IMG/VR virus record: IMGVR_UViG_3300037240_000302 | Location: 1-23,463 of that record | DNA from: a virus | Reading direction: 5' to 3' (one strand) | Length of the DNA stretch: 23,463 nt | Part shown: piece after piece, positions 8,646 to 22,627 of the stretch | How the letters are laid out: each line of letters starts with the position of its first letter | Position numbering within the stretch: position 1 is the stretch's first letter | The notes under the pieces: model-generated | Database searches by the model: none | Told to the model about the DNA's origin: nothing | What the model saw: the letters and a program-made list of their open reading frames with translations, nothing else | Position numbers and translations under genes: made by a program

Positions 8646-9543
8646 ATGGAAAGCCGTAGAAATCCCCGTCCTCTGCGCCCAGCGGAGGGGTCATCGAGAC
8701 ATAGAAGTTATCGGCGCCAGGCGCGGGCGGCCAGGGGAGCGAGGCGTAGATCTCAAACTGCGAGTACTCCTCGCCCAGGCCGCTGGTGTACATGCCATTC
8801 TGCCCGATCGCCGACCAGAACCCTGGCAGCAGGGCGCCGGTTCCGGAGAGGAAGACCATATAGCCGCCGGCGAACTGGTTGCCGGGGTAGATCTTGCCCG
8901 CGCTCGGCGCGGTGCAGTTGGCAATGATGTAATTCTCGGTCGACCCAGCCACACACTCAAAGACCGGAATCGACGGATCGCCGGGAGGCAAAGTGACCGC
9001 TGCGGTCGAGGCCAGGGTATTCGTGGTCTCAATCACCGTGGAGGGCACCTTTTGCGTGAGCACGTCGAGAAAGCTTTTGACGTTGAAGACGATCTGGTTG
9101 CGCTTGGGGCTCACGGTGTCAATGCGTCCACCAAACCAGTCCACACAGCCCAAGGTGTCGGCGTCGCCAGGCGTGGGCATCAGGGCTCTCCAGATGCGCA
9201 CCGGCCAGTTGTCATAGAAGTGCAACCGGGCGAGCTGGGCGACCGAGGCACTGGAGATGCTTGTGCCGGTAGCCTGCGTGTTTGGCGACCAGGTGATGCT
9301 CAAGCTCTGCGCGTCGGTCCCGATTTTGCACTGCACCATGTCTCGCTTGACTACGGCAGTATTGAAGCGGCCCCAGGGCGAGTAGATGACCGGGGCTTCA
9401 TGATTGGTCAGCCAGATGGAGCGCGGATCTTCGGGCGCGCCGATCAGGATCAGGTCGCGAAGGATCAGCGTCTTATTTGCCGCGAGGTAGGCGACTGCCG
9501 CAGCCGTATTGTCCTGGCCATTACCGGCGATCACGCGTCGCAT
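8617..9543 (-). CDS. DUF2163 / phage BR0599-family tail protein
   Basis: This 308-aa protein matches the DUF2163 tail protein family (GTA gp13-like) by order and by features such as the N-terminal AAVAYLAANKTLILRDLILI, a strand-rich middle (RIWRALMPTPGDADTLGCVD, GGRIDTVSPKRNQIVFNVKS) and the terminal GDFYGFPYVPNP, similar to the short C-terminal signature of the family. It should form part of the distal tail ring that joins tube to hub. Family members often carry conserved cysteines near the C-terminus; here Cys residues are sparse. The ATG at 9543 has GAGG upstream and overlaps the LuxR gene by 13 bp, so the two are probably translated together. Confidence 0.8.
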   Translation of the reverse strand: MRRVIAGNGQDNTAAAVAYLAANKTLILRDLILIGAPEDPRSIWLTNHEAPVIYSPWGRFNTAVVKRDMVQCKIGTDAQSLSITWSPNTQATGTSISSASVAQLARLHFYDNWPVRIWRALMPTPGDADTLGCVDWFGGRIDTVSPKRNQIVFNVKSFLDVLTQKVPSTVIETTNTLASTAAVTLPPGDPSIPVFECVAGSTENYIIANCTAPSAGKIYPGNQFAGGYMVFLSGTGALLPGFWSAIGQNGMYTSGLGEEYSQFEIYASLPWPPAPGADNFYVSMTPPLGAEDGDFYGFPYVPNPQSGV

Positions 9544-9845
9544 TTTGCCTCGTTCCTGCAGCCGGCAGCTAGAGCCTTGTGCTGCTGCATAAATACAACC
9601 GCTTCCACGCGCGTGCCCATGCCCGTCTTTTGATAGATAGCGTTCAGATGCTTGCTCACGGTTTCTTGTGAGATATTCAAAACCTGAGCTAGTTCCCGAT
9701 TGGAAGCTCCGAGCGATAGCGCATAGAGCACTTCTCTCTGCCGTGGTGTTAGAGATTTCAAAACTCGGATACCCGTCGTATCAGAAGCTCCCGGCACGAA
9801 GCCGTGGCCACATTGCGGACATTCGACTGTTGGAGTAATGCTCAT
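9531..9845 (-). CDS. LuxR/GerE-type HTH protein inside the tail operon
   Basis: This 104-aa protein has a complete LuxR-type helix-turn-helix at about residues 31-90: SLTPRQREVLYALSLGASNR, then ELAQVLNISQETVSKHLNAI, then YQKTGMGTRVEAV. The N-terminus carries ECPQCG, a CxxC knuckle, and the C-terminus has Cys-x5-Cys (CRNEAKC), so a metal site is possible but unproven. There is no receiver or autoinducer domain, so it is a bare DNA-binding protein. It sits between the DUF2460 and DUF2163 region genes, overlapping DUF2163 by 13 bp. No strong Shine-Dalgarno precedes the ATG; an AT-rich stretch and inverted repeats lie upstream. It may regulate phage late genes or host genes; neither is shown by the sequence. 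Confidence 0.85.
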   Translation of the reverse strand: MSITPTVECPQCGHGFVPGASDTTGIRVLKSLTPRQREVLYALSLGASNRELAQVLNISQETVSKHLNAIYQKTGMGTRVEAVVFMQQHKALAAGCRNEAKCDA

Positions 9846-10467: not shown

Positions 10468-11232
10468 CTAAAGCGGGTTGGGGCGTGACTGGCTGATTTT
10501 GACGTAACCTTTGCCGTTCTGCGATTCGCTGCCACCGATGGTCCACATCTTCTTTAGGCCCATCGAGAACTTTTCCATGTCTTGCGAATCGGATTCAAAG
10601 CGGCAGCGGAAGTAAAAGCTGAACTGCGCGGTGATCGGCGCGGTGGGCTGCACGGACCATTGCAAGTACATGCCCATATAAGAGCCGCCGGGGATGGCCA
10701 GACCGGGTCCCAGCAGCTGATAGGTAGGCCCCGAGTAGCCGCCTGGCGCAGATCCGGTAGCGTAGGCCTCTACGCCGTTGCAATAGACCTCGAGCGCCTG
10801 GCCGCCAGAGTAGGGGCTGGTATTGAGATCGACGACGTCCTCATAGAAGAGGCCGCCGAAGGTACGCTGCAGCGGCGAATAGTAATAGGTGCCGTCGGTG
10901 ATGAGACTCAATTGGGCCAGCGGAACATTGGGCTCGCCGGCGAGCATCGCCGGGCCGACGCTGTTGTCGTCCGGATCGAGGAAGAGGAAGGATTGCCCAG
11001 CGCCGCCCACGGCCAGGAAGAAGTCCAGCAGCGTGCGCAGCTCGCCGACGCCAAAACTGGGCGTGGGATAGTCGCGGAGAAAGTCGTAGATCAACTCCCA
11101 GTTCCATATCGGGTTCACCGTCTGCGGCAGACGCACGTCGTACTTGTTGGGTGCAGTCTCAATGAGGGTGTCGAAGTCCACCGACTTGAGCACAGGGAGG
11201 GTGAGACCCGGAAGTGTGGGGTAGACGAGCAT
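10468..11232 (-). CDS. DUF2460-family distal tail protein
   Basis: This 254-aa protein matches DUF2460 (GTA gp12-like, distal tail). Typical traits are the N-terminal part (YPTLPGLTLPVLKSVDFDTL), the Trp/Tyr-rich WNWELIYDFLRD, a loop FFLAVGGAGQSFLFLDPDDN matching the family's FFxxxxGxxxxFxFxDPxD signature, and a C-terminal strand region ending in an FRCRFESD...FSMGL segment typical of Dit-like proteins. It should form the ring at the tube end that carries the tip. GGAG lies a few bases before the ATG at 11232. It follows the tape measure gene by 46 bp, the normal order. Confidence 0.87.
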   Translation of the reverse strand: MLVYPTLPGLTLPVLKSVDFDTLIETAPNKYDVRLPQTVNPIWNWELIYDFLRDYPTPSFGVGELRTLLDFFLAVGGAGQSFLFLDPDDNSVGPAMLAGEPNVPLAQLSLITDGTYYYSPLQRTFGGLFYEDVVDLNTSPYSGGQALEVYCNGVEAYATGSAPGGYSGPTYQLLGPGLAIPGGSYMGMYLQWSVQPTAPITAQFSFYFRCRFESDSQDMEKFSMGLKKMWTIGGSESQNGKGYVKISQSRPNPL

Positions 11233-15339: not shown

Positions 15340-16122
15340 TTACAGATCCCCTTCGATGGTGCCGACGTTGCCCGAGCCATCGGCACTGGCTTCGAAGTCG
15401 AAATCTGAGAGCCAGTGATCCTCTTGCTTGGTGGGGATAGAGAAGCTGCCGATCATGACCGCGTTGAGAGTAACGGCGTATCGCTTGCCCTTGTAGGAGT
15501 TGAAAAGCGAGAGCGCCAACTGTGGCGCTTCACCGATCAACTGGTTGGAAATCAAGAGAGAGAGGCCGTGAGTGGTATCCGGCCACGAATAGCTGATCAG
15601 CACCGTGGTCGCAGTCTCTGAGGCGTTGAAGACGAAGCTGGCGTTGGTCACCGGAGACGACCCGCTGGCCGGAACGAACTTGTAGCTTCCGATGGGCGGT
15701 GCGCCGGCGCCGGTGTAGAGTGTCATTTGCTCGGTGGTGGGTTGGCCTGCGGCGTTGAGATAGATAGCGAGAACACCCAGGTTGACGTTGGCGGTGGGAT
15801 TGATGGGGGTGATCGATGCCGCCGGCGCATAGCTCTCATTGAAAACCGGGCTCTGCATTCCCTCTTGAACTGCCAGGCCGAAAAATGTCTGAGAGAGCAC
15901 ATCCGGTGTGGGCACGATCATCTTGCCCTTGCCGGTGATCTTGACCTTGCCGCGCAGGGTGTCCATCGAGATCTGATATTGACCGTAGAGGCCCTTCAAG
16001 TCTCCCTTGAACTCCACCGACACTTCCTGAAGAACCGGGAAGACGTAGGGAGAGGGGTTGGGGGGCAAGAGGCCGATGTTCGGCGTCCCAATCAGGACGC
16101 CACTTCCACCTTGAAAGTTCAT
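15340..16122 (-). CDS. Major tail (tube) protein
   Basis: This 260-aa protein probably polymerises into the tail tube. The ATG at 16122 is preceded by AAGGAGCTACC; an upstream in-frame ATG at 16152 has none. Features include an early FPVLQEVSVEFKGDLKGLYG, a strand pair SMDTLRGKVKITGKGKM, a variable middle with GSYKFVPASGSSPV and a late SNQLIGEAPQLALSLFNSYK, followed by YAVTLNAVMIGSFSIPTKQE and FDFEASADGSGNVGTIEGD. The strand-rich pattern, length and location between tail terminator and chaperone genes fit a tube protein. A non-coding structured gap follows, consistent with uncoupling high expression from downstream genes. Confidence 0.8.
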   Translation of the reverse strand: MNFQGGSGVLIGTPNIGLLPPNPSPYVFPVLQEVSVEFKGDLKGLYGQYQISMDTLRGKVKITGKGKMIVPTPDVLSQTFFGLAVQEGMQSPVFNESYAPAASITPINPTANVNLGVLAIYLNAAGQPTTEQMTLYTGAGAPPIGSYKFVPASGSSPVTNASFVFNASETATTVLISYSWPDTTHGLSLLISNQLIGEAPQLALSLFNSYKGKRYAVTLNAVMIGSFSIPTKQEDHWLSDFDFEASADGSGNVGTIEGDL

Positions 16123-16232: not shown

Positions 16233-16724
16233 TTAATCGATCAAAATATGCACCGGAATCAGGGCACCGAGCAGGCTGCCAAAGATGCCCGGGTCGATAA
16301 AGGTTTTTCCCTCGATCCAGCAGTGGGTGACCAGGCCGCCGAGGGTGAACTTGCCGGTGTTGGGATCGTCCGGCAGGAAGGCGCCGTCGATCGCCTCGAG
16401 CAGCCCGTTCATAACGGTTTCACCGAGTACCTGCTCCTTGCCGATATCCTCAACCGGCGCCGGGTTCCAGGCATAGACGTATATCAATCCATGCAAAATC
16501 AATTTGGGCGGTGCACCCGGCGGCTTCTGCGGAATCTGCTCTTCTTTCTCTGCGACTAGGAAGAGCGCCGGCATGTCGGCGATCTTGAGTGTGGGCGGCA
16601 GGGTTTGCTTGCGTCCCATGGATGTAAACTCCATACCGAGGTTACTCACGAGCGAGTTGAAAAGCGCAACCAATACCGCCTCGCGATTGATGGCCGCGAA
16701 TTGCGAGCTGATCCCGACGGTCAT
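16233..16724 (-). CDS. Tail terminator-like protein (gpU-like)
   Basis: This 163-aa protein probably caps the tube and joins it to the head. The helical N-terminus INREAVLVALFNSLVSN, the strand element PALFLVAEKEEQIPQKPPGA, then LILHGLIYVYAWN, the helix LGETVMNGLLEAIDGAF and the terminal ALIPVHILID resemble phage tail terminator or minor tail proteins of about this length. The final strand with IPVHI is typical. Its ATG overlaps the stop of the gp10-like gene by ATGA, implying coupling. The tube gene follows after a 110-bp gap. Confidence 0.72.
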   Translation of the reverse strand: MTVGISSQFAAINREAVLVALFNSLVSNLGMEFTSMGRKQTLPPTLKIADMPALFLVAEKEEQIPQKPPGAPPKLILHGLIYVYAWNPAPVEDIGKEQVLGETVMNGLLEAIDGAFLPDDPNTGKFTLGGLVTHCWIEGKTFIDPGIFGSLLGALIPVHILID

Positions 16725-17293
16725 ACATTCTCCCCTGCAGCGGCTGCGGCGACGGCTTCTTGGATTTTTTCGAGCAGCGGCGGGTACCAGGTATCCATCG
16801 CCTCGGTAGCAAATGGCCGCGGCCGCACGCTGAAGGCCGCGTGCCCTGCCGCCCAGACTGGGGTTCCATCGGCCATAAAGGTAAAGGCGCGATGCATGAA
16901 GGAGCCAGCAAAACTCGAACCGCCCTTCAATGCTTTGTTGTATTTTCTGCGCTGGCCGCTCTGTGACAGCTTCATCGCCCCCTCATGAAAGCCAGCTAAG
17001 AGCCAGATGCCGATATGCTTGCCCTTCGTGCCCATCGAGCTATCCGTTTGAACCGTGCATCCGATCTCCGCCTCGTTGTCGTAGGCCATCGCTGAAGCCA
17101 GGATCGCTGCAAAGTATTTTCCGGTGCGCTCCTCAACTCCCTCCTCGGCCGCGGCCTGAACTGTCGCCTCAGCCAGCTCCGGAGCGCCCTCTTCCATCAC
17201 CTCGAGCACATTCGAGAAGATAAGCTCGCGCACCATCTCAAGGTGATCGACAGTTTCGTCGACGCTGGTCTGATCCACAAAGAGCGAGATCAT
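16721..17293 (-). CDS. HK97 gp10-like tail-completion / head-tail joining protein
   Basis: The start at 17293 is favoured because its ATG overlaps the methyltransferase stop (ATGA); a longer frame to 17335 runs into that gene. The 190-aa product has helical segments (EMVRELIFSNVLEVMEEGAP, ELAEATVQAAAEEGVEERTG) followed by a conserved-looking strand region and a C-terminal helix (WYPPLLEKIQEAVAAAA). RTGKYFAAILAS and the HRAFTFMADG segment fit gp10-like joining proteins in a general way. The order connector, gp10-like, tail terminator, tube is standard, except that two modification genes are inserted before it. The family assignment is moderate. Confidence 0.6.
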   Translation of the reverse strand: MISLFVDQTSVDETVDHLEMVRELIFSNVLEVMEEGAPELAEATVQAAAEEGVEERTGKYFAAILASAMAYDNEAEIGCTVQTDSSMGTKGKHIGIWLLAGFHEGAMKLSQSGQRRKYNKALKGGSSFAGSFMHRAFTFMADGTPVWAAGHAAFSVRPRPFATEAMDTWYPPLLEKIQEAVAAAAAGENV

Positions 17294-17811
17294 TCGGTCA
17301 ACCCCTTGCGCCAGACTCCTACCCAATCCAGCCATTCTGACTCGCCGTCGAGCTCGCCGATCGAAGACTCCAGCAGCTCGAGAAAATAGAAGTTGCGCGC
17401 TGCCCAGCGAGTGAGCGCGTCGCCGGCGTCCGGATAGAAGCGCCAGCAGTCAACAGGGTGCCGATGCACTGGCCCGTTCGATGGCGAATTGATATAGAGA
17501 AATCCTCCCGGCTTGAGGATCCTTGCCATCTCGAGAAACAGCAGCCAGAAAAACTCCGCGTGCTCAAAGGTCGAGGAGCTGACTACCACGTCCACCGAAT
17601 CATCCACGAAAGGCAGCCGGTAAGGCTCAACGAGTACCCGATCGACGCCAGGTCCCTCCGCCGCGTCCACGCCGATCCACTGAGAGTCCGGAGGCGCCAC
17701 CTCGCGCAGGGCGCCTCCGTAGACCTCCATCGAACCCACCTCGACGATGGTTCCAGTGGCTGGATAGGCGGCGAAAAAACGCCGGGCCGCTTCTTTGGCT
17801 CCGGGATGCAT
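17290..17811 (-). CDS. SAM-dependent class I methyltransferase in the head-tail cluster
   Basis: The ATG at 17811 shares a base with the glycosyltransferase stop (TGATG), so this start is preferred over an upstream frame with unlikely sequence. The 173-aa product has motif I (TIVEVGSMEVYGG, residues 21-33), an acidic motif II (WIGVDAAEGPGVD), the PFVDDSVDVVVSSSTFEHAE stretch and EMARILKPGGFLYINSP, all typical of Methyltransf_11 enzymes. It would transfer methyl from S-adenosylmethionine; the substrate is not evident. VHRHPVDCWRFYPDAG resembles methyltransferases found next to glycosyltransferases. It is tightly coupled to the glycosyltransferase before it and the gp10-like gene after it, so it is expressed with the virion genes. 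Confidence 0.88.
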   Translation of the reverse strand: MHPGAKEAARRFFAAYPATGTIVEVGSMEVYGGALREVAPPDSQWIGVDAAEGPGVDRVLVEPYRLPFVDDSVDVVVSSSTFEHAEFFWLLFLEMARILKPGGFLYINSPSNGPVHRHPVDCWRFYPDAGDALTRWAARNFYFLELLESSIGELDGESEWLDWVGVWRKGLTE

Positions 17812-19295
17812 CAGGCGCCCAGCCGCGCCTTGAGCGCCGGCAGAAACTGCTGAATGGTGCGATCGTCTATGTCGCGCGCCTGGCGGTTCTCGAATTCCGT
17901 CCTGGCCACGACGCCCAGGCCATCCACGCGGCCCAGGGCAATGCGCTTGTAGTATTCCTGGCGGCTTTTTGTCCCGTAGTGGTTGATGCGCAAGAGTGAA
18001 CTGTGATGAATAACGGTGCGCGCGGAGCCGATCTTCTCGCCCTCCTCGCCGAAGGTACCGGCGGCCACATTGAAGAAGTGCGCATTCTGGCCACTTGTAC
18101 AACCCTTATCCATACGAATGATCGACTTGATGTGACGGCTGTTGTCGTTAGTGTTCGGCAGTCTCCAATTGAAGCGTTCGATCACTGGCTCCGGCGAGTA
18201 CTCCTCGCGCCCAGAGGCGCCGAAGTAAACCCAGTTAACTCCCACCGCGCCCCAGGCCTGGTTGATGCGCTCGAGCGCCGGCGGAACGGTGGGGTATTGC
18301 GGCGAGAAGAGAAATTCGTCGATATCGATGAAAGCGATCCACAGCTGCTGCCCATGGTGTTTTCTGAGGCAGTCAGAATATGCGGCCATCTGCGTCGGGC
18401 CAGCCTGGGGCCATTCAATCAGCTCCACAATCTTGCGGTCGATATAGGGCTGGAGAACCTCGCGCCAGTTGTCTTTGGAGCGGTTCTGGTAAAGGAAGAA
18501 GCGGCTCACTCCCATCATCAAGTGGAACTCCACCCACTCGCGCAGGTAGAGCGCCTCGTCGCGGAAGATGGCGCAGATGGCGAGCGCGTTGGGGCTCACG
18601 ATCGGCCCTGGGCTTGACCTGGTGATACGGATCCAGTCCGCGCCATATTTGCGCGCCATCACCGTATCCATCTGGAGCTGCGCTTTGCGGCCATAGGCAT
18701 TGCGATCGGTCTGCGATGCCTTCGAGAGATGATGCAGCTCGGCGCGGTTGGTAAGCACTGAATGCAGGCCGGCCTGGCGAATGCGGTAGCCGTAGTCATA
18801 ATCGACGCCCCAACCGAGGGTGAACTCGAGATCCCAGAACCCAATCTCCTCAATCGTCACAGCTTTGATCAGCGTGCAGGTGGGCTCAAGCCAGGGCACA
18901 ACCTGCGCCTCGCTCGCGGCCTGGCGCATGTGCGGATGATCAGAGTTATACATCGGCGAAATCTGTCCGAAGCTGGGATCTGAAAATAAGGTATCGACGA
19001 GAATCCGAAGAACGCCTTGTTGATCCCTGGGAAACTGCAGATCGGAATTCAAAAACCAGTAAGCATCGTAGTTTTTAGTCTTGCGCGCGAGCTGATATCC
19101 CTCATGCATGCCTTTCGTAAAGCCGAGATTGAGCGGCAACTGCAGCTCCGCGCCGTCATACTCAGGCACGCTGCCATTGTCGACGACGTAGACATCCGCA
19201 TCCTCATAGTCGAGCTCGGTGCGCAGATAGGCCGCCAGCTTCGACGTCAGATCGGGCGTATTGAAGTTGAGAACGATGATGGCGACAGATTGCAT
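17811..19295 (-). CDS. Two-domain glycosyltransferase (GT2-like plus GT92/DUF23-like)
   Basis: The ATG at 19295 has GCAGGAG upstream. The 494-aa protein has an N-terminal GT-A domain like family 2 rhamnosyltransferases: VAIIVLNFNTP (4-14), VVDNGS (37-42), NLGFTKGMHEGYQLA, WFLNSDLQFP (80-89) and GWGVDYDYGYRIRQAG (161-176). The second domain, from about 238, resembles GT92: ALAICAIFRDEALYLREWVE, FHLMMGVSRFFLYQNRSKD, and FIDIDEFLF (322-330) with the metal-binding DxD-like site, then a C-terminal part with HYGTKSRQEYYKRIALGR. Both active-site patterns look intact, so it could add two sugars. It lies between connector and gp10-like genes, with the methyltransferase next. The target (virion or cell surface) is unknown. 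Confidence 0.88.
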   Translation of the reverse strand: MQSVAIIVLNFNTPDLTSKLAAYLRTELDYEDADVYVVDNGSVPEYDGAELQLPLNLGFTKGMHEGYQLARKTKNYDAYWFLNSDLQFPRDQQGVLRILVDTLFSDPSFGQISPMYNSDHPHMRQAASEAQVVPWLEPTCTLIKAVTIEEIGFWDLEFTLGWGVDYDYGYRIRQAGLHSVLTNRAELHHLSKASQTDRNAYGRKAQLQMDTVMARKYGADWIRITRSSPGPIVSPNALAICAIFRDEALYLREWVEFHLMMGVSRFFLYQNRSKDNWREVLQPYIDRKIVELIEWPQAGPTQMAAYSDCLRKHHGQQLWIAFIDIDEFLFSPQYPTVPPALERINQAWGAVGVNWVYFGASGREEYSPEPVIERFNWRLPNTNDNSRHIKSIIRMDKGCTSGQNAHFFNVAAGTFGEEGEKIGSARTVIHHSSLLRINHYGTKSRQEYYKRIALGRVDGLGVVARTEFENRQARDIDDRTIQQFLPALKARLGA

Positions 19296-19415
19296 GCTTC
19301 GAACTCCTGCGATCGGAGAAGTTGAATTGAGGCAGCGTGTTGCAGGCACTAGATGGGCACAGTGGTCCGGAGATCTCCTCCGGCGCCATGCGCAACCTCA
19401 AACTTGATGGAACAA

Positions 19416-20120
19416 TTAACTGCGATTGACGGCGGTAAATTGGTAGTTCCTCTTCATGCGCAGATCGCGCTCATCTTGGCGTCGATCGAGCGACGGCAGG
19501 CAGCGCGTATAGCGTTCGATCACTCTCAAAACATTCGGCGGTGCATCGAGAAGCGGCGCCTGCAGGCTGTCACCCTCAGTCGACCGGCGCTCGGTTGCGC
19601 TCACGTTGGGCCGCTCGTTGTAGCGGTAGGTGCACCAGTCGATGACCGCCTGCTCGATATCCTCGGGCAGCAGGATCTGACCGTCAGTTGGTCCGTAGGG
19701 CAAATAGGTCGGCAAGTAACCGGCCGTGTAGCCGATCTCGATGGGCTGATTGTCGGTGAAGACCAAGCCCCCAGCCAGCCAGAGATTGGAGATGCGCTCG
19801 GGGTCGATGTCCTGGTCGATAAACCACCCTGGCAAGATCTTGTCAGGGCTCTCAGCCACGGCGTAAGGCAGTCCGCCGATGATGAGCGATTGGACGAACA
19901 CAATCGGCCAGTGGTAGAGCGGAAAACGCTTCGATCCGTCGCCCAACCGGACCTCGGCATAGTCCGCCTGCAGCAGATCAGGGCGCTTGGTAGCGCGCAT
20001 GAAGTCCTGCGACGTCGCAGTGATCAGCCGCCCGATCGTCGCGTCGTCCGAAGTATTGGTCGACGTGATTGGCAGCCAATCTTTGAGGGTTTGTAGTGTC
20101 GTCAGATCCTGGGCGGCCAT
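19416..20120 (-). CDS. Head-tail connector protein (gp6-like)
   Basis: This 234-aa protein starts with a short helix pair (LQTLKDWLPITSTNTSDDAT, IGRLITATSQDFMRATKRPD) like the gp6-type connectors that form a ring below the portal. It continues through strands (YAEVRLGDGSKRFPLYHWPI, FVQSLIIGGLPYAV) to a helix VIDWCTYRYNERPNVSATER. IEIGYTAGYLP resembles the V.V.Y.AGY strand of this family. TGGAG is just upstream of the ATG at 20120. It is the second connector-like gene in this cluster. Afterwards comes a 120-bp gap with a small hairpin (CCGGAG/CTCCGG, 19367-19383), then the glycosyltransferase, which suggests an insertion point. Confidence 0.75.
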   Translation of the reverse strand: MAAQDLTTLQTLKDWLPITSTNTSDDATIGRLITATSQDFMRATKRPDLLQADYAEVRLGDGSKRFPLYHWPIVFVQSLIIGGLPYAVAESPDKILPGWFIDQDIDPERISNLWLAGGLVFTDNQPIEIGYTAGYLPTYLPYGPTDGQILLPEDIEQAVIDWCTYRYNERPNVSATERRSTEGDSLQAPLLDAPPNVLRVIERYTRCLPSLDRRQDERDLRMKRNYQFTAVNRS

Positions 20121-20132
20121 GGGTACTCCATT

Positions 20133-20282
20133 TCAGTTGGCGGCGTGACGGGCAAGCAGCGACAGCCCGATCGCAATCATTTCATTGACAGATCGTGCAT
20201 TGACGACGCAGACCGCCGACGCCGGCTGGCAGCTAAAGCGAAAACCGAGTGCGAGGTTAGCAAGAATAAGAGTGTCCTTCAT
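20133..20282 (-). CDS. Small 49-aa ORF coupled to the gp8-like connector
   Basis: The ATG at 20282 overlaps the stop of the gp8-like gene as ATGA, and the stop at 20133 is 12 bp before the next gene's start, so the space is filled exactly. The product begins MKDTLILANLALGFRFSCQP and ends with a helix-like stretch (SVNEMIAIGLSLLARHAAN). It is somewhat hydrophobic with two Cys and no recognised family. Position and overlap argue for a real gene; the short length and lack of homology argue for caution. Confidence 0.5.
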   Translation of the reverse strand: MKDTLILANLALGFRFSCQPASAVCVVNARSVNEMIAIGLSLLARHAAN

Positions 20283-20983
20283 GCTGGCCGATAGCTGAAG
20301 TTGTAATTCGAGTAAAAGTCGAGCAACGCGCCGGCAGCCGGAGAAATCAATTTCAGGTCCAACGGTTCAGGACTGCCGAGCTGATAGAGCCGCGCCAGGA
20401 GGAGCTTGATGGCCGCCTTGAGGTCCTGCGGGCAGGTATCGACCAGGACGCCATCGCCGTAGCTTCCGGCGACGTAAGTGATCACCACCGAGCCTGGTTT
20501 ATAGGTCATCCCGGAGGGCCAGGTGATTCCATCGACAGGCGTGATGCGCGCCGGCTCCGATGTAAGATCGACCTGGTACTGGCAAGGATCCACTGTTTGC
20601 ACGTTGTTGTTCTGATCGACATAGGTGATCGAAACTACACTGTTGGTCTTCGGCCGGGGAACATCGATGGTGACGGCGTTCAAGTAATCAGAGTAGTAGG
20701 GCCAGTCCTTGCGGTAGCTGGGATTGACGGTACTGTTCATAGACCACCAAATCGGGAAGTGGTCGAGGGTTCTGATCCAGGTCTGGTTAAAGATAGCCCG
20801 GTCCATGTAATTCTCAGCGATGGCCCGCGCTGCGACGATGAAGGGCCGGAGCTGGGCGCCGAGGATCTCCTCAGCTGCCCGATCCGTGTCCTGCATGGGC
20901 CCGAAGCCGCATTGCAGCTTGGCCTGGTAGAGCGTGATCGGCTCGACCACCGGCCCGATGATGGGTTGCGTACTGAGAGGCAT
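20279..20983 (-). CDS. phiE125 gp8-like head-tail connector
   Basis: This 234-aa protein matches the phiE125 gp8 type: ITLYQAKLQCGF near the start, LRPFIVAARAIAENYMDRAI, FNQTWIRTLDHFPIWW, a VDQNNNVQTVDPCQYQVDLT stretch, PARITPVDGITWP and VVITYVAGSYGDG, then a helix LKAAIKLLLARLYQLG. These are the hallmark segments of the family, which forms the adaptor ring under the portal. AAGGAG lies just before the ATG at 20983. It lies downstream of the capsid and a 76-aa gene and upstream of the 49-aa ORF. Confidence 0.88.
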   Translation of the reverse strand: MPLSTQPIIGPVVEPITLYQAKLQCGFGPMQDTDRAAEEILGAQLRPFIVAARAIAENYMDRAIFNQTWIRTLDHFPIWWSMNSTVNPSYRKDWPYYSDYLNAVTIDVPRPKTNSVVSITYVDQNNNVQTVDPCQYQVDLTSEPARITPVDGITWPSGMTYKPGSVVITYVAGSYGDGVLVDTCPQDLKAAIKLLLARLYQLGSPEPLDLKLISPAAGALLDFYSNYNFSYRPA

Positions 20984-21346: not shown

Positions 21347-22627
21347 TTAGCTGGCCGGTGTGGCCAGCGCCAGGATGGGATGCGTGCCGGCATCTGTGAA
21401 AGCGGAGCCGATACGGGCGTAGCCGATGAAGCCCACTTCCAAGGTGTCGGCGAAGCGCTCGTCGAGGCGCAGGATGGAGATATCGCCGTCCGTGCGCAGC
21501 AGGTATCCCTGGGCGAAGTCGCCGAAGAAAACCCCGTTGACCGGGTTGTAGGGGCTGGCTGCATTGGCAGCGACCAGCGCCTGATTGAGAACGATGGGGC
21601 GCCCGAGGATCATATCGAGCGAGCCGGTATTGGGGTTGGGAATGAAGAGCGGCCGACCGTACAGGTCCTTCTGGCCCATGATAAAGGCACGGCTGAGCGA
21701 ACTCATTAGCCAGTTGGCGTTGGCCAGGTAAGCCGGGTCGAGCGCGGCGTAGAGGGCGACAAAGTCGTCGTACACCGGGCCCGTCGAGCTGACCGCGGTG
21801 GCGCCGACGGTTGGTCCCGCGGTGGTGTGCGAGCCGGCAACAGCGCCAGGTACCAGGCCAACGATGTTCGAGCCGTTGCCGTTGGTGATCAGGTACTCCA
21901 GGCCGCGATAGTACCGGAGCGCAAACTTGTCGCGCAGCCAGGTTTCGAGGTTGAAGTAGCTGTCGTCGAGCTCCTGACGCGACACTTTGACCAGGGTGGC
22001 CACAGTATCGGTCTGCATGACGAATCCAGAGAAGCTGGGATCCTGCTCCGCCACTACCGATGCTTCGGCTGTGAGGGTGGTCAGGGTATTCATGGTGTCG
22101 TTCGCGAGCGCCACCTTGATGGGCGCGCCGTTATTGTTGGTAATCTTCTTGCCAACAATGCTCACCGTGTTGCCGATGAGCTTCAGAGCGTCGTACATGG
22201 TGGTGAGGAACTGCTGCGGGATCATGGTTGCGCCCGAAGGCCCGGTCCCTGGAGGCGCCGGCAGGCCGCCGACAATGGTCACATCGCGGCGCTCGAGCAG
22301 CGCGCGCTCTTCCTCGTTGAGGTGAGAATAGCCGCGGCGGATGTACTTCTCAAAAGCCTTGCGCTCGGATTTCAGATGAACTGGGTCGGTCGCCAGATCC
22401 GATCCATCGGGGTTGGGGCGCGGTGGGCGCTCGGTCGAGCGAGAATCAGCGTCGAGCTTTTCAACTAGCTCGAGGCGCTTGATATCGCCCTCGTGGACTG
22501 CGACGTCGGCCATCATCTGGTCGAACTTGGCGCGGTCCTCTGTCGTGACTGCATCCTGCAGCACGATACGCTGCGCTTCAGCGATGAGCTGAACGCGCTT
22601 TTGACGCATTTCAATAAGCTTGGACAT
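21347..22627 (-). CDS. HK97-fold major capsid protein
   Basis: This 426-aa protein is the main shell subunit. A charged helical N-terminal delta/scaffold region spans about 1-115 (MRQKRVQLIAEAQRIVLQDA, KFDQMMADVAVHEGDIKRLE) and is probably removed by the protease. The core follows: TMIPQQFLTTMYDALKLIGN, KVALANDTMNTLTTLTAEAS, SFSGFVMQTDTVATLVKVSR (the P-domain spine), QELDDSYFNLETWLRDKFAL, ANWLMSSLSRAFIMGQKDLY, GRPLFIPNPNTGSLDMILGR, PIVLNQALVAANAAS and a C-terminal FFGDFAQGYLLRTDGDISIL. These are family landmarks. GAGG stands upstream of the ATG. The protease gene is directly before it, the universal order. Confidence 0.96.
   Translation of the reverse strand: MSKLIEMRQKRVQLIAEAQRIVLQDAVTTEDRAKFDQMMADVAVHEGDIKRLELVEKLDADSRSTERPPRPNPDGSDLATDPVHLKSERKAFEKYIRRGYSHLNEEERALLERRDVTIVGGLPAPPGTGPSGATMIPQQFLTTMYDALKLIGNTVSIVGKKITNNNGAPIKVALANDTMNTLTTLTAEASVVAEQDPSFSGFVMQTDTVATLVKVSRQELDDSYFNLETWLRDKFALRYYRGLEYLITNGNGSNIVGLVPGAVAGSHTTAGPTVGATAVSSTGPVYDDFVALYAALDPAYLANANWLMSSLSRAFIMGQKDLYGRPLFIPNPNTGSLDMILGRPIVLNQALVAANAASPYNPVNGVFFGDFAQGYLLRTDGDISILRLDERFADTLEVGFIGYARIGSAFTDAGTHPILALATPAS

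What the first reader, a model, noticed from the sequence alone, without database searches (positions are those of the whole stretch)
17290..19295. Two-domain glycosyltransferase plus methyltransferase embedded in the head-tail assembly operon
A GT2-GT92 fusion and a Methyltransf_11 enzyme sit between the second connector and the gp10-like gene, where phages normally have no enzymes. TGATG and ATGA overlaps couple both to a virion gene, so they should be made during assembly. The pair looks like a small pathway that adds one or two sugars and then methylates the product. It could decorate capsid or tail subunits, or change host surface glycans to block competing phages. Seen: motifs and overlaps. 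Known: GT2, GT92 and Methyltransf_11 chemistry. Inferred: the target.
Basis: partly seen in the sequence, partly recalled or inferred. Interest (0 to 1): 0.75.

Follow-up and report, generated by a model that had tools for sequence, protein, structure and literature searches.

The report
Sugar-and-methyl gene cassette among phage connectors
A bacterial virus that probably infects soil Acidobacteria carries a two-domain sugar-attaching enzyme and a methyl-adding enzyme inside its particle-building operon, and related viruses repeatedly carry different sugar-attaching genes in the same stretch, which suggests, but does not prove, that these viruses decorate their own particles.

Summary
A 494-aa two-domain glycosyltransferase (GT92 C-half, E 2e-22; GT2-like N-half, weak by Pfam, motifs intact) and a 173-aa SAM methyltransferase lie on the minus strand between the second head-tail adaptor and the next assembly gene, joined by TGATG and ATGA overlaps. 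Two other IMG/VR contigs carry it identically. An 83%-identical GT sits in the same place in five relatives without the methyltransferase. A 75%-capsid relative has the empty junction. A 71%-capsid relative has a 53%-identical GT with an unrelated methyltransferase. Purifying selection on the GT is strong (dN/dS about 0.12, both halves). Across 50 records with related capsids, all eight Pfam GT2 matches lie within 6 kb downstream of the capsid gene (chance about 3e-5), in several slots. Prophages place the host in Acidobacteriaceae. The idea that phages have no enzymes here is wrong: mycobacteriophage clusters J and O carry GT + methyltransferase cassettes among capsid and connector genes, and published work links such enzymes to capsid and tail-tube glycosylation. 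The sequences are unrelated. Best reading: a late-expressed virion-glycosylation cassette, methyltransferase optional. The target is inferred. New variant of a known kind.

The parts
17811..19295 (-). two-domain glycosyltransferase, 494 aa: N-half (window 18588-19295) GT2-like, C-half (window 17811-18587) GT92
   Evidence: dN/dS 0.12 vs L004; GT92 half weakly matches the sequence of solved galactan synthase 8d3t, E 0.026
17290..17811 (-). SAM-dependent methyltransferase, 173 aa, member of a large phage family (invariant HxxPxDCWRFYPD block)
17809..17813 (-). TGATG stop/start overlap coupling GT to methyltransferase
   Evidence: sequence shown
17290..17293 (-). ATGA start/stop overlap coupling methyltransferase to the next gene
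   Evidence: sequence shown; in L004 the GT itself overlaps the same downstream gene by ATGA
16721..17293 (-). downstream virion-operon gene, 190 aa, conserved in relatives (78% in L004, 31% in L013); function unverified ('gp10-like' not supported)
19416..20120 (-). second head-tail adaptor (Phage_connect_1 / phrog_442)
20279..20983 (-). first head-tail adaptor (phrog_442)
19296..19415 (-). 120-bp gap upstream of the GT with AGGAG ribosome-binding site and a GCCGGAGGAGATCTCCGG inverted repeat conserved in L004; no sigma-70-like promoter found
21347..22627 (-). HK97-type major capsid protein, candidate acceptor
15340..16122 (-). probable tail-tube gene by position (phrog_8234, unknown function), candidate acceptor
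   Evidence: position before the tape measure gene

Best explanation
The two genes form a virion-modification cassette of a probably temperate tailed phage of Acidobacteria. The soluble two-domain GT, made late together with the connectors, transfers one or two sugars from host nucleotide-sugars to an abundant virion protein (capsid or tail tube most likely), and in this subgroup the methyltransferase caps or alters that glycan, or methylates the same protein. Shown: the genes, their fusion and coupling, their conserved and recurrent position, and purifying selection on the GT. Inferred: late expression, glycosyl and methyl transfer, and the acceptor.
For: Position inside the virion operon with stop/start overlaps and no sigma-70-like promoter in the upstream gap. 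The GT stays at the same junction in an 83%-identical lineage while the methyltransferase comes and goes; it appears with an unrelated methyltransferase in L014 between adaptor and stopper; L013 and the Acidobacteriaceae prophages L098-L100 have empty junctions. GT dN/dS 0.12 overall (0.117 and 0.113 for the halves) against 0.195 for the capsid. In 50 related-capsid records, all eight GT2 matches in seven records fall within 6 kb downstream of the capsid although that is 27% of the bases; product of per-record chances 3e-5. 9 of 29 capsid clusters carry a GT in the interval (7 with clearer Pfam support, L136 and L160 weak), in four slots. In phages the methyltransferase family often lies next to GTs, and similar domains occur inside proteins named as GTs. 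Precedent: cluster O and J mycobacteriophages carry unrelated GT/MT sets among virion genes, and enzymes of cluster O are reported to modify capsid and tail-tube proteins (PMC11600133; mycobacteriophage capsid and tail-tube C-terminal glycans also described in PMC12619734). No GtrA-type flippase in 12 records.
Against: No proteomic or glycan data exist. Gene position does not prove target. Known precedents share no usable sequence similarity (best BLAST E 0.019). No shared capsid C-terminal feature separates carriers from non-carriers. The GT2 half is below Pfam cut-offs and the GT model failed (pLDDT 35), so bifunctionality is not structurally tested. Late-made GTs could equally act on host glycans just before lysis.
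Confidence: 0.6

Rival explanations
1. The enzymes modify host surface glycans (lipopolysaccharide or capsule), in the lysogen or late in infection, to block competing phages or prevent progeny re-adsorbing to debris.
For: The phage carries an integrase (phrog_1), so it is probably temperate. In Acidobacteriales, single GT92 domains (31-37% identity) lie near methyltransferase-like genes in at least two of four genomes. Published Acidobacteriota viruses carry GtrB-like and other GT genes (PMC11924767). GT92 and rhamnosyltransferase-like GT2 enzymes commonly build polysaccharides (general knowledge).
Against: The genes sit inside the virion operon with stop/start coupling and no visible own promoter. 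No GtrA flippase in the window or 11 related records. Recurrent placement near connectors rather than in the lysogeny region.
Confidence: 0.22
2. The cassette is mobile cargo (a moron) tolerated in a permissive gap of the late operon; its product is not tied to the virion.
For: The methyltransferase is present or absent between close relatives and empty junctions exist. Four different slots are used by unrelated GT families.
Against: The GT is under stronger purifying selection than most neighbours. Cargo recognised in the interval is almost all modification enzymes (GT, methyltransferase, radical SAM), not a random mix. No promoter or terminator typical of a moron was found around it.
Confidence: 0.12
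3. The GT glycosylates phage DNA (hypermodified bases) and the methyltransferase acts on DNA or its sugar.
For: Phage GTs can decorate DNA (general knowledge; mentioned in PMC12619734).
Against: No base-hypermodification enzyme was recognised among the window proteins scanned. The methyltransferase best matches small-molecule methyltransferases, not DNA methylases. The GT92 match is to a polysaccharide synthase.
Confidence: 0.05

Closest known systems
Cluster J mycobacteriophage cassette (Omega gp16-gp17, LittleE gp15-18, Thibault gp11-19)
   Same: [quoted passage not shown] includes GTs and SAM-methyltransferases with start/stop overlaps; Omega gp16 is a two-domain GT with a methyltransferase next to it (PMC3706429)
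   Different: No usable sequence similarity; upstream of the first adaptor rather than after the second; also carries a kinase and other genes; actinobacterial host; Omega gp16 compared to chondroitin synthase, not GT2-GT92
Cluster O mycobacteriophage cassette (Corndog gp35-gp38; Idergollasper gp33-36)
   Same: O-methyltransferase and GT genes with overlaps inside the virion operon; reported to modify capsid and tail tube (PMC4351075; PMC11600133)
   Different: Between portal and capsid protease; methyltransferase upstream of the GTs; separate GTs rather than a fusion; no homology found
L014 cassette (IMG/VR 3300035696_003061)
   Same: Homologous GT2-GT92 fusion (53% identity) in the connector interval, adjacent to a methyltransferase
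   Different: Methyltransferase is of another family and lies upstream; slot is adaptor-stopper; downstream tail genes are of another type
GT92 galactan synthases (solved structure 8d3t)
   Same: C-half of the GT has a GT92 domain (Pfam E 2e-22)
   Different: Weak direct similarity (E 0.026); the phage protein adds a GT2-like domain and shows no obvious membrane anchor
phrog_32762 SAM-dependent methyltransferase family of phages
   Same: P0002 matches E 3e-12; many homologues at 45-59% identity in viral contigs, several next to GT genes
   Different: None is in a head-tail connector interval among the ten neighbourhoods read here

Membership tests
GT92 (Glyco_transf_92) | Profile match above curated cut-off | tested here: met
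   80.3 bits against cut-off 23
GT92 (Glyco_transf_92) | DXD-type metal-binding motif | tested here: met
   DIDEF invariant in all three relatives; the fold itself was not modelled
GT2 | Profile match of the N-half above cut-off | tested here: not met
   E 0.002-0.11 for the window, 1e-4 for L014, all below gathering scores; so called GT2-like, not filed as GT2
GT2 | Nucleotide-binding, DXD-like and catalytic-base motifs | tested here: met
   VVDNGS, LNSD, GVDYDYGYR conserved in window, L004, L014
Class I SAM methyltransferase / Methyltransf_11 | Rossmann-type fold and profile match | tested here: met
   41 bits against cut-off 21.2; AF2 pLDDT 88, over 1000 PDB matches at E <= 0.001, the best 50 all methyltransferase-type
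Virion-glycosylation cassette (mycobacteriophage clusters O/J type) | GT genes located among virion structural genes | tested here: met
Virion-glycosylation cassette (mycobacteriophage clusters O/J type) | Sequence homology to the characterised GTs or MTs | tested here: not met
   Best BLASTP E 0.019 to LittleE gp18; profile searches silent
Virion-glycosylation cassette (mycobacteriophage clusters O/J type) | Glycan on capsid or tail-tube protein | not testable with these tools
   Needs mass spectrometry of virions
O-antigen conversion (gtrABC) module | GtrA flippase plus membrane GT | tested here: not met
   PF04138 absent in the window and 11 related records, some of them fragments

The most novel reading that the evidence does not exclude
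The interval between capsid and tail-tube genes is a general slot where phage lineages, well beyond mycobacteriophages, repeatedly acquire glycan-modification enzymes acting on their own particles; virion glycosylation would then be widespread in environmental phages, here as a disaccharide built by a GT2-GT92 fusion and optionally methylated.
Probability: 0.35. Interest if true: 0.72.

Novelty: new variant of a known kind. Interest (0 to 1): 0.5.

Why it matters
In the papers read here, virion glycosylation by phage enzymes is tied to mycobacteriophages. A conserved, recurrent GT (and sometimes methyltransferase) slot in the capsid-to-tail interval of phages, some of Acidobacteria, predicts that particle decoration also occurs in Gram-negative soil phages, where mammalian antibody evasion cannot be the reason. 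It gives a concrete acceptor shortlist and an empty-site control lineage for testing.

Tried and rejected
AlphaFold2 of the GT with three sequences failed (pLDDT 35), so no fold search was made with it. A search of 397 genomes of the order of Granulicella sp. dw_53 found no full-length GT homologue, only GT92-half matches at 31-37%, so recent capture from a sampled host is unsupported. Capsid C-termini show no carrier-specific tail. gp10 identity of the downstream gene not supported. No DNA-level or close protein relative of the GT in the phage collection. The key paper on mycobacteriophage virion glycosylation (Freeman 2023) is not held and is cited only through papers that describe it. Omega and Corndog records by accession were not in the collection; LittleE, Thibault and Idergollasper were used instead. 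RNA folding of the upstream gap: window z -0.45, L004 z -2.95, inconclusive. PF08241 matches in related records do not fall in the connector interval, so only the GT, not the methyltransferase, shows the positional enrichment.

Full report
WHAT IS THERE. The window is a complete IMG/VR virus record of 23,463 bases, possibly a genome fragment. On the minus strand it carries an HK97-type capsid gene (21347-22627), two head-tail adaptors matching phrog_442 (20279-20983, 19416-20120), then the two enzymes, then a 190-aa gene (16721-17293), phrog_8150 and phrog_8234 genes, and a tape measure gene. An integrase at 1-1149 marks it as probably temperate. The GT (17811-19295) has a strong GT92 C-half and a GT2-like N-half; the methyltransferase (17290-17811) is a small class I enzyme. 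TGATG and ATGA overlaps are as reported. The label gp10-like for the next gene is not supported.

NOT AN ARTEFACT, AND SELECTED. Two other IMG/VR contigs carry the region at 100% identity (L002, L003). Against the L004 lineage the GT has dN/dS 0.119, with 0.117 and 0.113 for its halves, lower than capsid (0.195), adaptors (0.16) and tube (0.30). Both halves are therefore kept, which argues that both domains matter.

COMPARATIVE HISTORY. In L004-L008 (GT 83%, capsid 85%) the GT sits at the same junction and its stop overlaps the start of the next gene directly; the methyltransferase is absent. In L013 (capsid 75%, second adaptor 68%) the junction is empty, 61 bases between the two virion genes. 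In L014 (capsid 71%) a 53%-identical GT lies between the adaptor and the stopper, directly after a methyltransferase of another family. Related prophages in Granulicella and Silvibacterium place the host group in Acidobacteriaceae and have adaptor and stopper side by side with no enzyme. A GT with interchangeable methyltransferases, or none, fits a core glycosylation step with optional tailoring.

A RECURRENT SLOT. I scanned 50 virus records with related capsids (839 kb) for Pfam GT2. Eight matches in seven records were found (one of them, L185, weak), and every one lies 1.4-5.4 kb downstream of the capsid gene, in a zone holding 27% of the bases; multiplying the chance for each record gives about 3e-5. 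Two of the seven records (L140, L141) are near-identical, so the figure is approximate and somewhat too small. Reading these intervals shows GT genes in four slots: after the first adaptor (L014, L017, and weaker L136, L160), second adaptor to next gene (window, L004), stopper to tail completion (L140, L141) and gp10 to tube (L177, L182, L185, with a PF13524 GT and, in L185, a radical SAM enzyme). At 80% capsid identity, 9 of 29 clusters with the interval visible carry a GT there (7 with clearer Pfam support). The GT families differ, which suggests several acquisitions. The enrichment is for GTs; Methyltransf_11 matches in the same records fall elsewhere. The records were chosen by capsid similarity, and GT2 was searched over whole records, so the position is not built into the sampling.

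THE METHYLTRANSFERASE FAMILY. It has many phage relatives at 45-59% identity with an invariant HxxPxDCWRFYPD block. In L034 and L038 it overlaps a GT directly upstream, just before packaging genes; in phage MW202524 it stands in a GT cluster ahead of virion genes; and viral structure matches include records named as glycosyltransferases, one of them Aah/TibC-like, that contain a similar domain. The closest solved structures are varied small-molecule methyltransferases, so the exact acceptor cannot be read from fold.

MECHANISM. Most likely: late transcription makes the GT with the connectors; the soluble enzyme uses host nucleotide-sugars to put one or two sugars on an abundant virion protein; the methyltransferase caps the glycan in this subgroup. 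Steps shown: gene content, coupling, position, selection, recurrence. Steps inferred: expression timing, chemistry, acceptor. No sigma-70-like promoter was seen in the upstream gap, and no GtrA flippase in 12 records, which weighs mildly against surface-glycan conversion of the lysogen. A late effect on host glycans remains possible.

COMPARISON WITH WHAT IS KNOWN. Cluster J mycobacteriophages have 8-10 inserted genes including GTs and methyltransferases between capsid and connectors; Omega has a two-domain GT next to a methyltransferase (PMC3706429; annotated in LittleE and Thibault). Cluster O has an O-methyltransferase and GTs between portal and protease; few capsid peptides were detected and modification was proposed (PMC4351075), and a later paper states that these enzymes modify capsid and tail tube (PMC11600133). 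The present cassette works like these by architecture, but shares no usable sequence similarity with them, so it is not filed as a homologue. It is a new variant of a known kind, in another phylum of hosts and another slot.

VERDICT. Observation confirmed; interpretation partly supported. Confidence 0.6 in virion modification. Interest 0.5: the precedent removes the surprise of enzymes among virion genes, but the recurrent slot makes virion glycosylation outside mycobacteriophages directly testable.

Noticed in passing
window 19330-19400 (-): The gap between second adaptor and GT holds an inverted repeat (GCCGGAGGAGATCTCCGG) identical in L004 although neighbouring synonymous sites have diverged by about 60%; possible RNA element, L004 folds with z -2.95, window z -0.45.
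   Followed up: partly
L013 11660-11724: The empty junction in L013 holds a strong terminator-like hairpin (GGGGCCGG...CCGGCCCC followed by TTTTTT) between the second adaptor and the next gene.
   Followed up: no
L185 8391-11058: Cassette of GT2, radical SAM/SPASM and a PF13524 glycosyltransferase between gp10 and tube genes; a radical SAM enzyme in a virion operon is unusual.
   Followed up: partly
L182 10891-12777: GT2 and PF13524 glycosyltransferase fused in one 628-aa protein, while L177 has them as two overlapping genes: an independent two-domain GT fusion in the same interval.
   Followed up: partly
L014 9790-10728: The head-tail adaptor of L014 is 312 aa, longer than the 219-234 aa of relatives by an internal insert.
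   Followed up: no
window 9531-9845 (-): A 104-aa sigma-factor-like or helix-turn-helix protein (phrog_3282, E 2.6e-8) encoded among tail genes.
   Followed up: no
window 10468-11232 (-): A tail-region protein matching phrog_2913 'glycoside hydrolase' (E 2e-15) just downstream of the tape measure gene; could act on host glycans at entry.
   Followed up: no
L034 7337-8510, L038 7337-8510: GT2 and methyltransferase genes overlapping each other directly upstream of the packaging gene GP3 (and, in L038, terminase): another GT/MT pair attached to late genes.
   Followed up: partly
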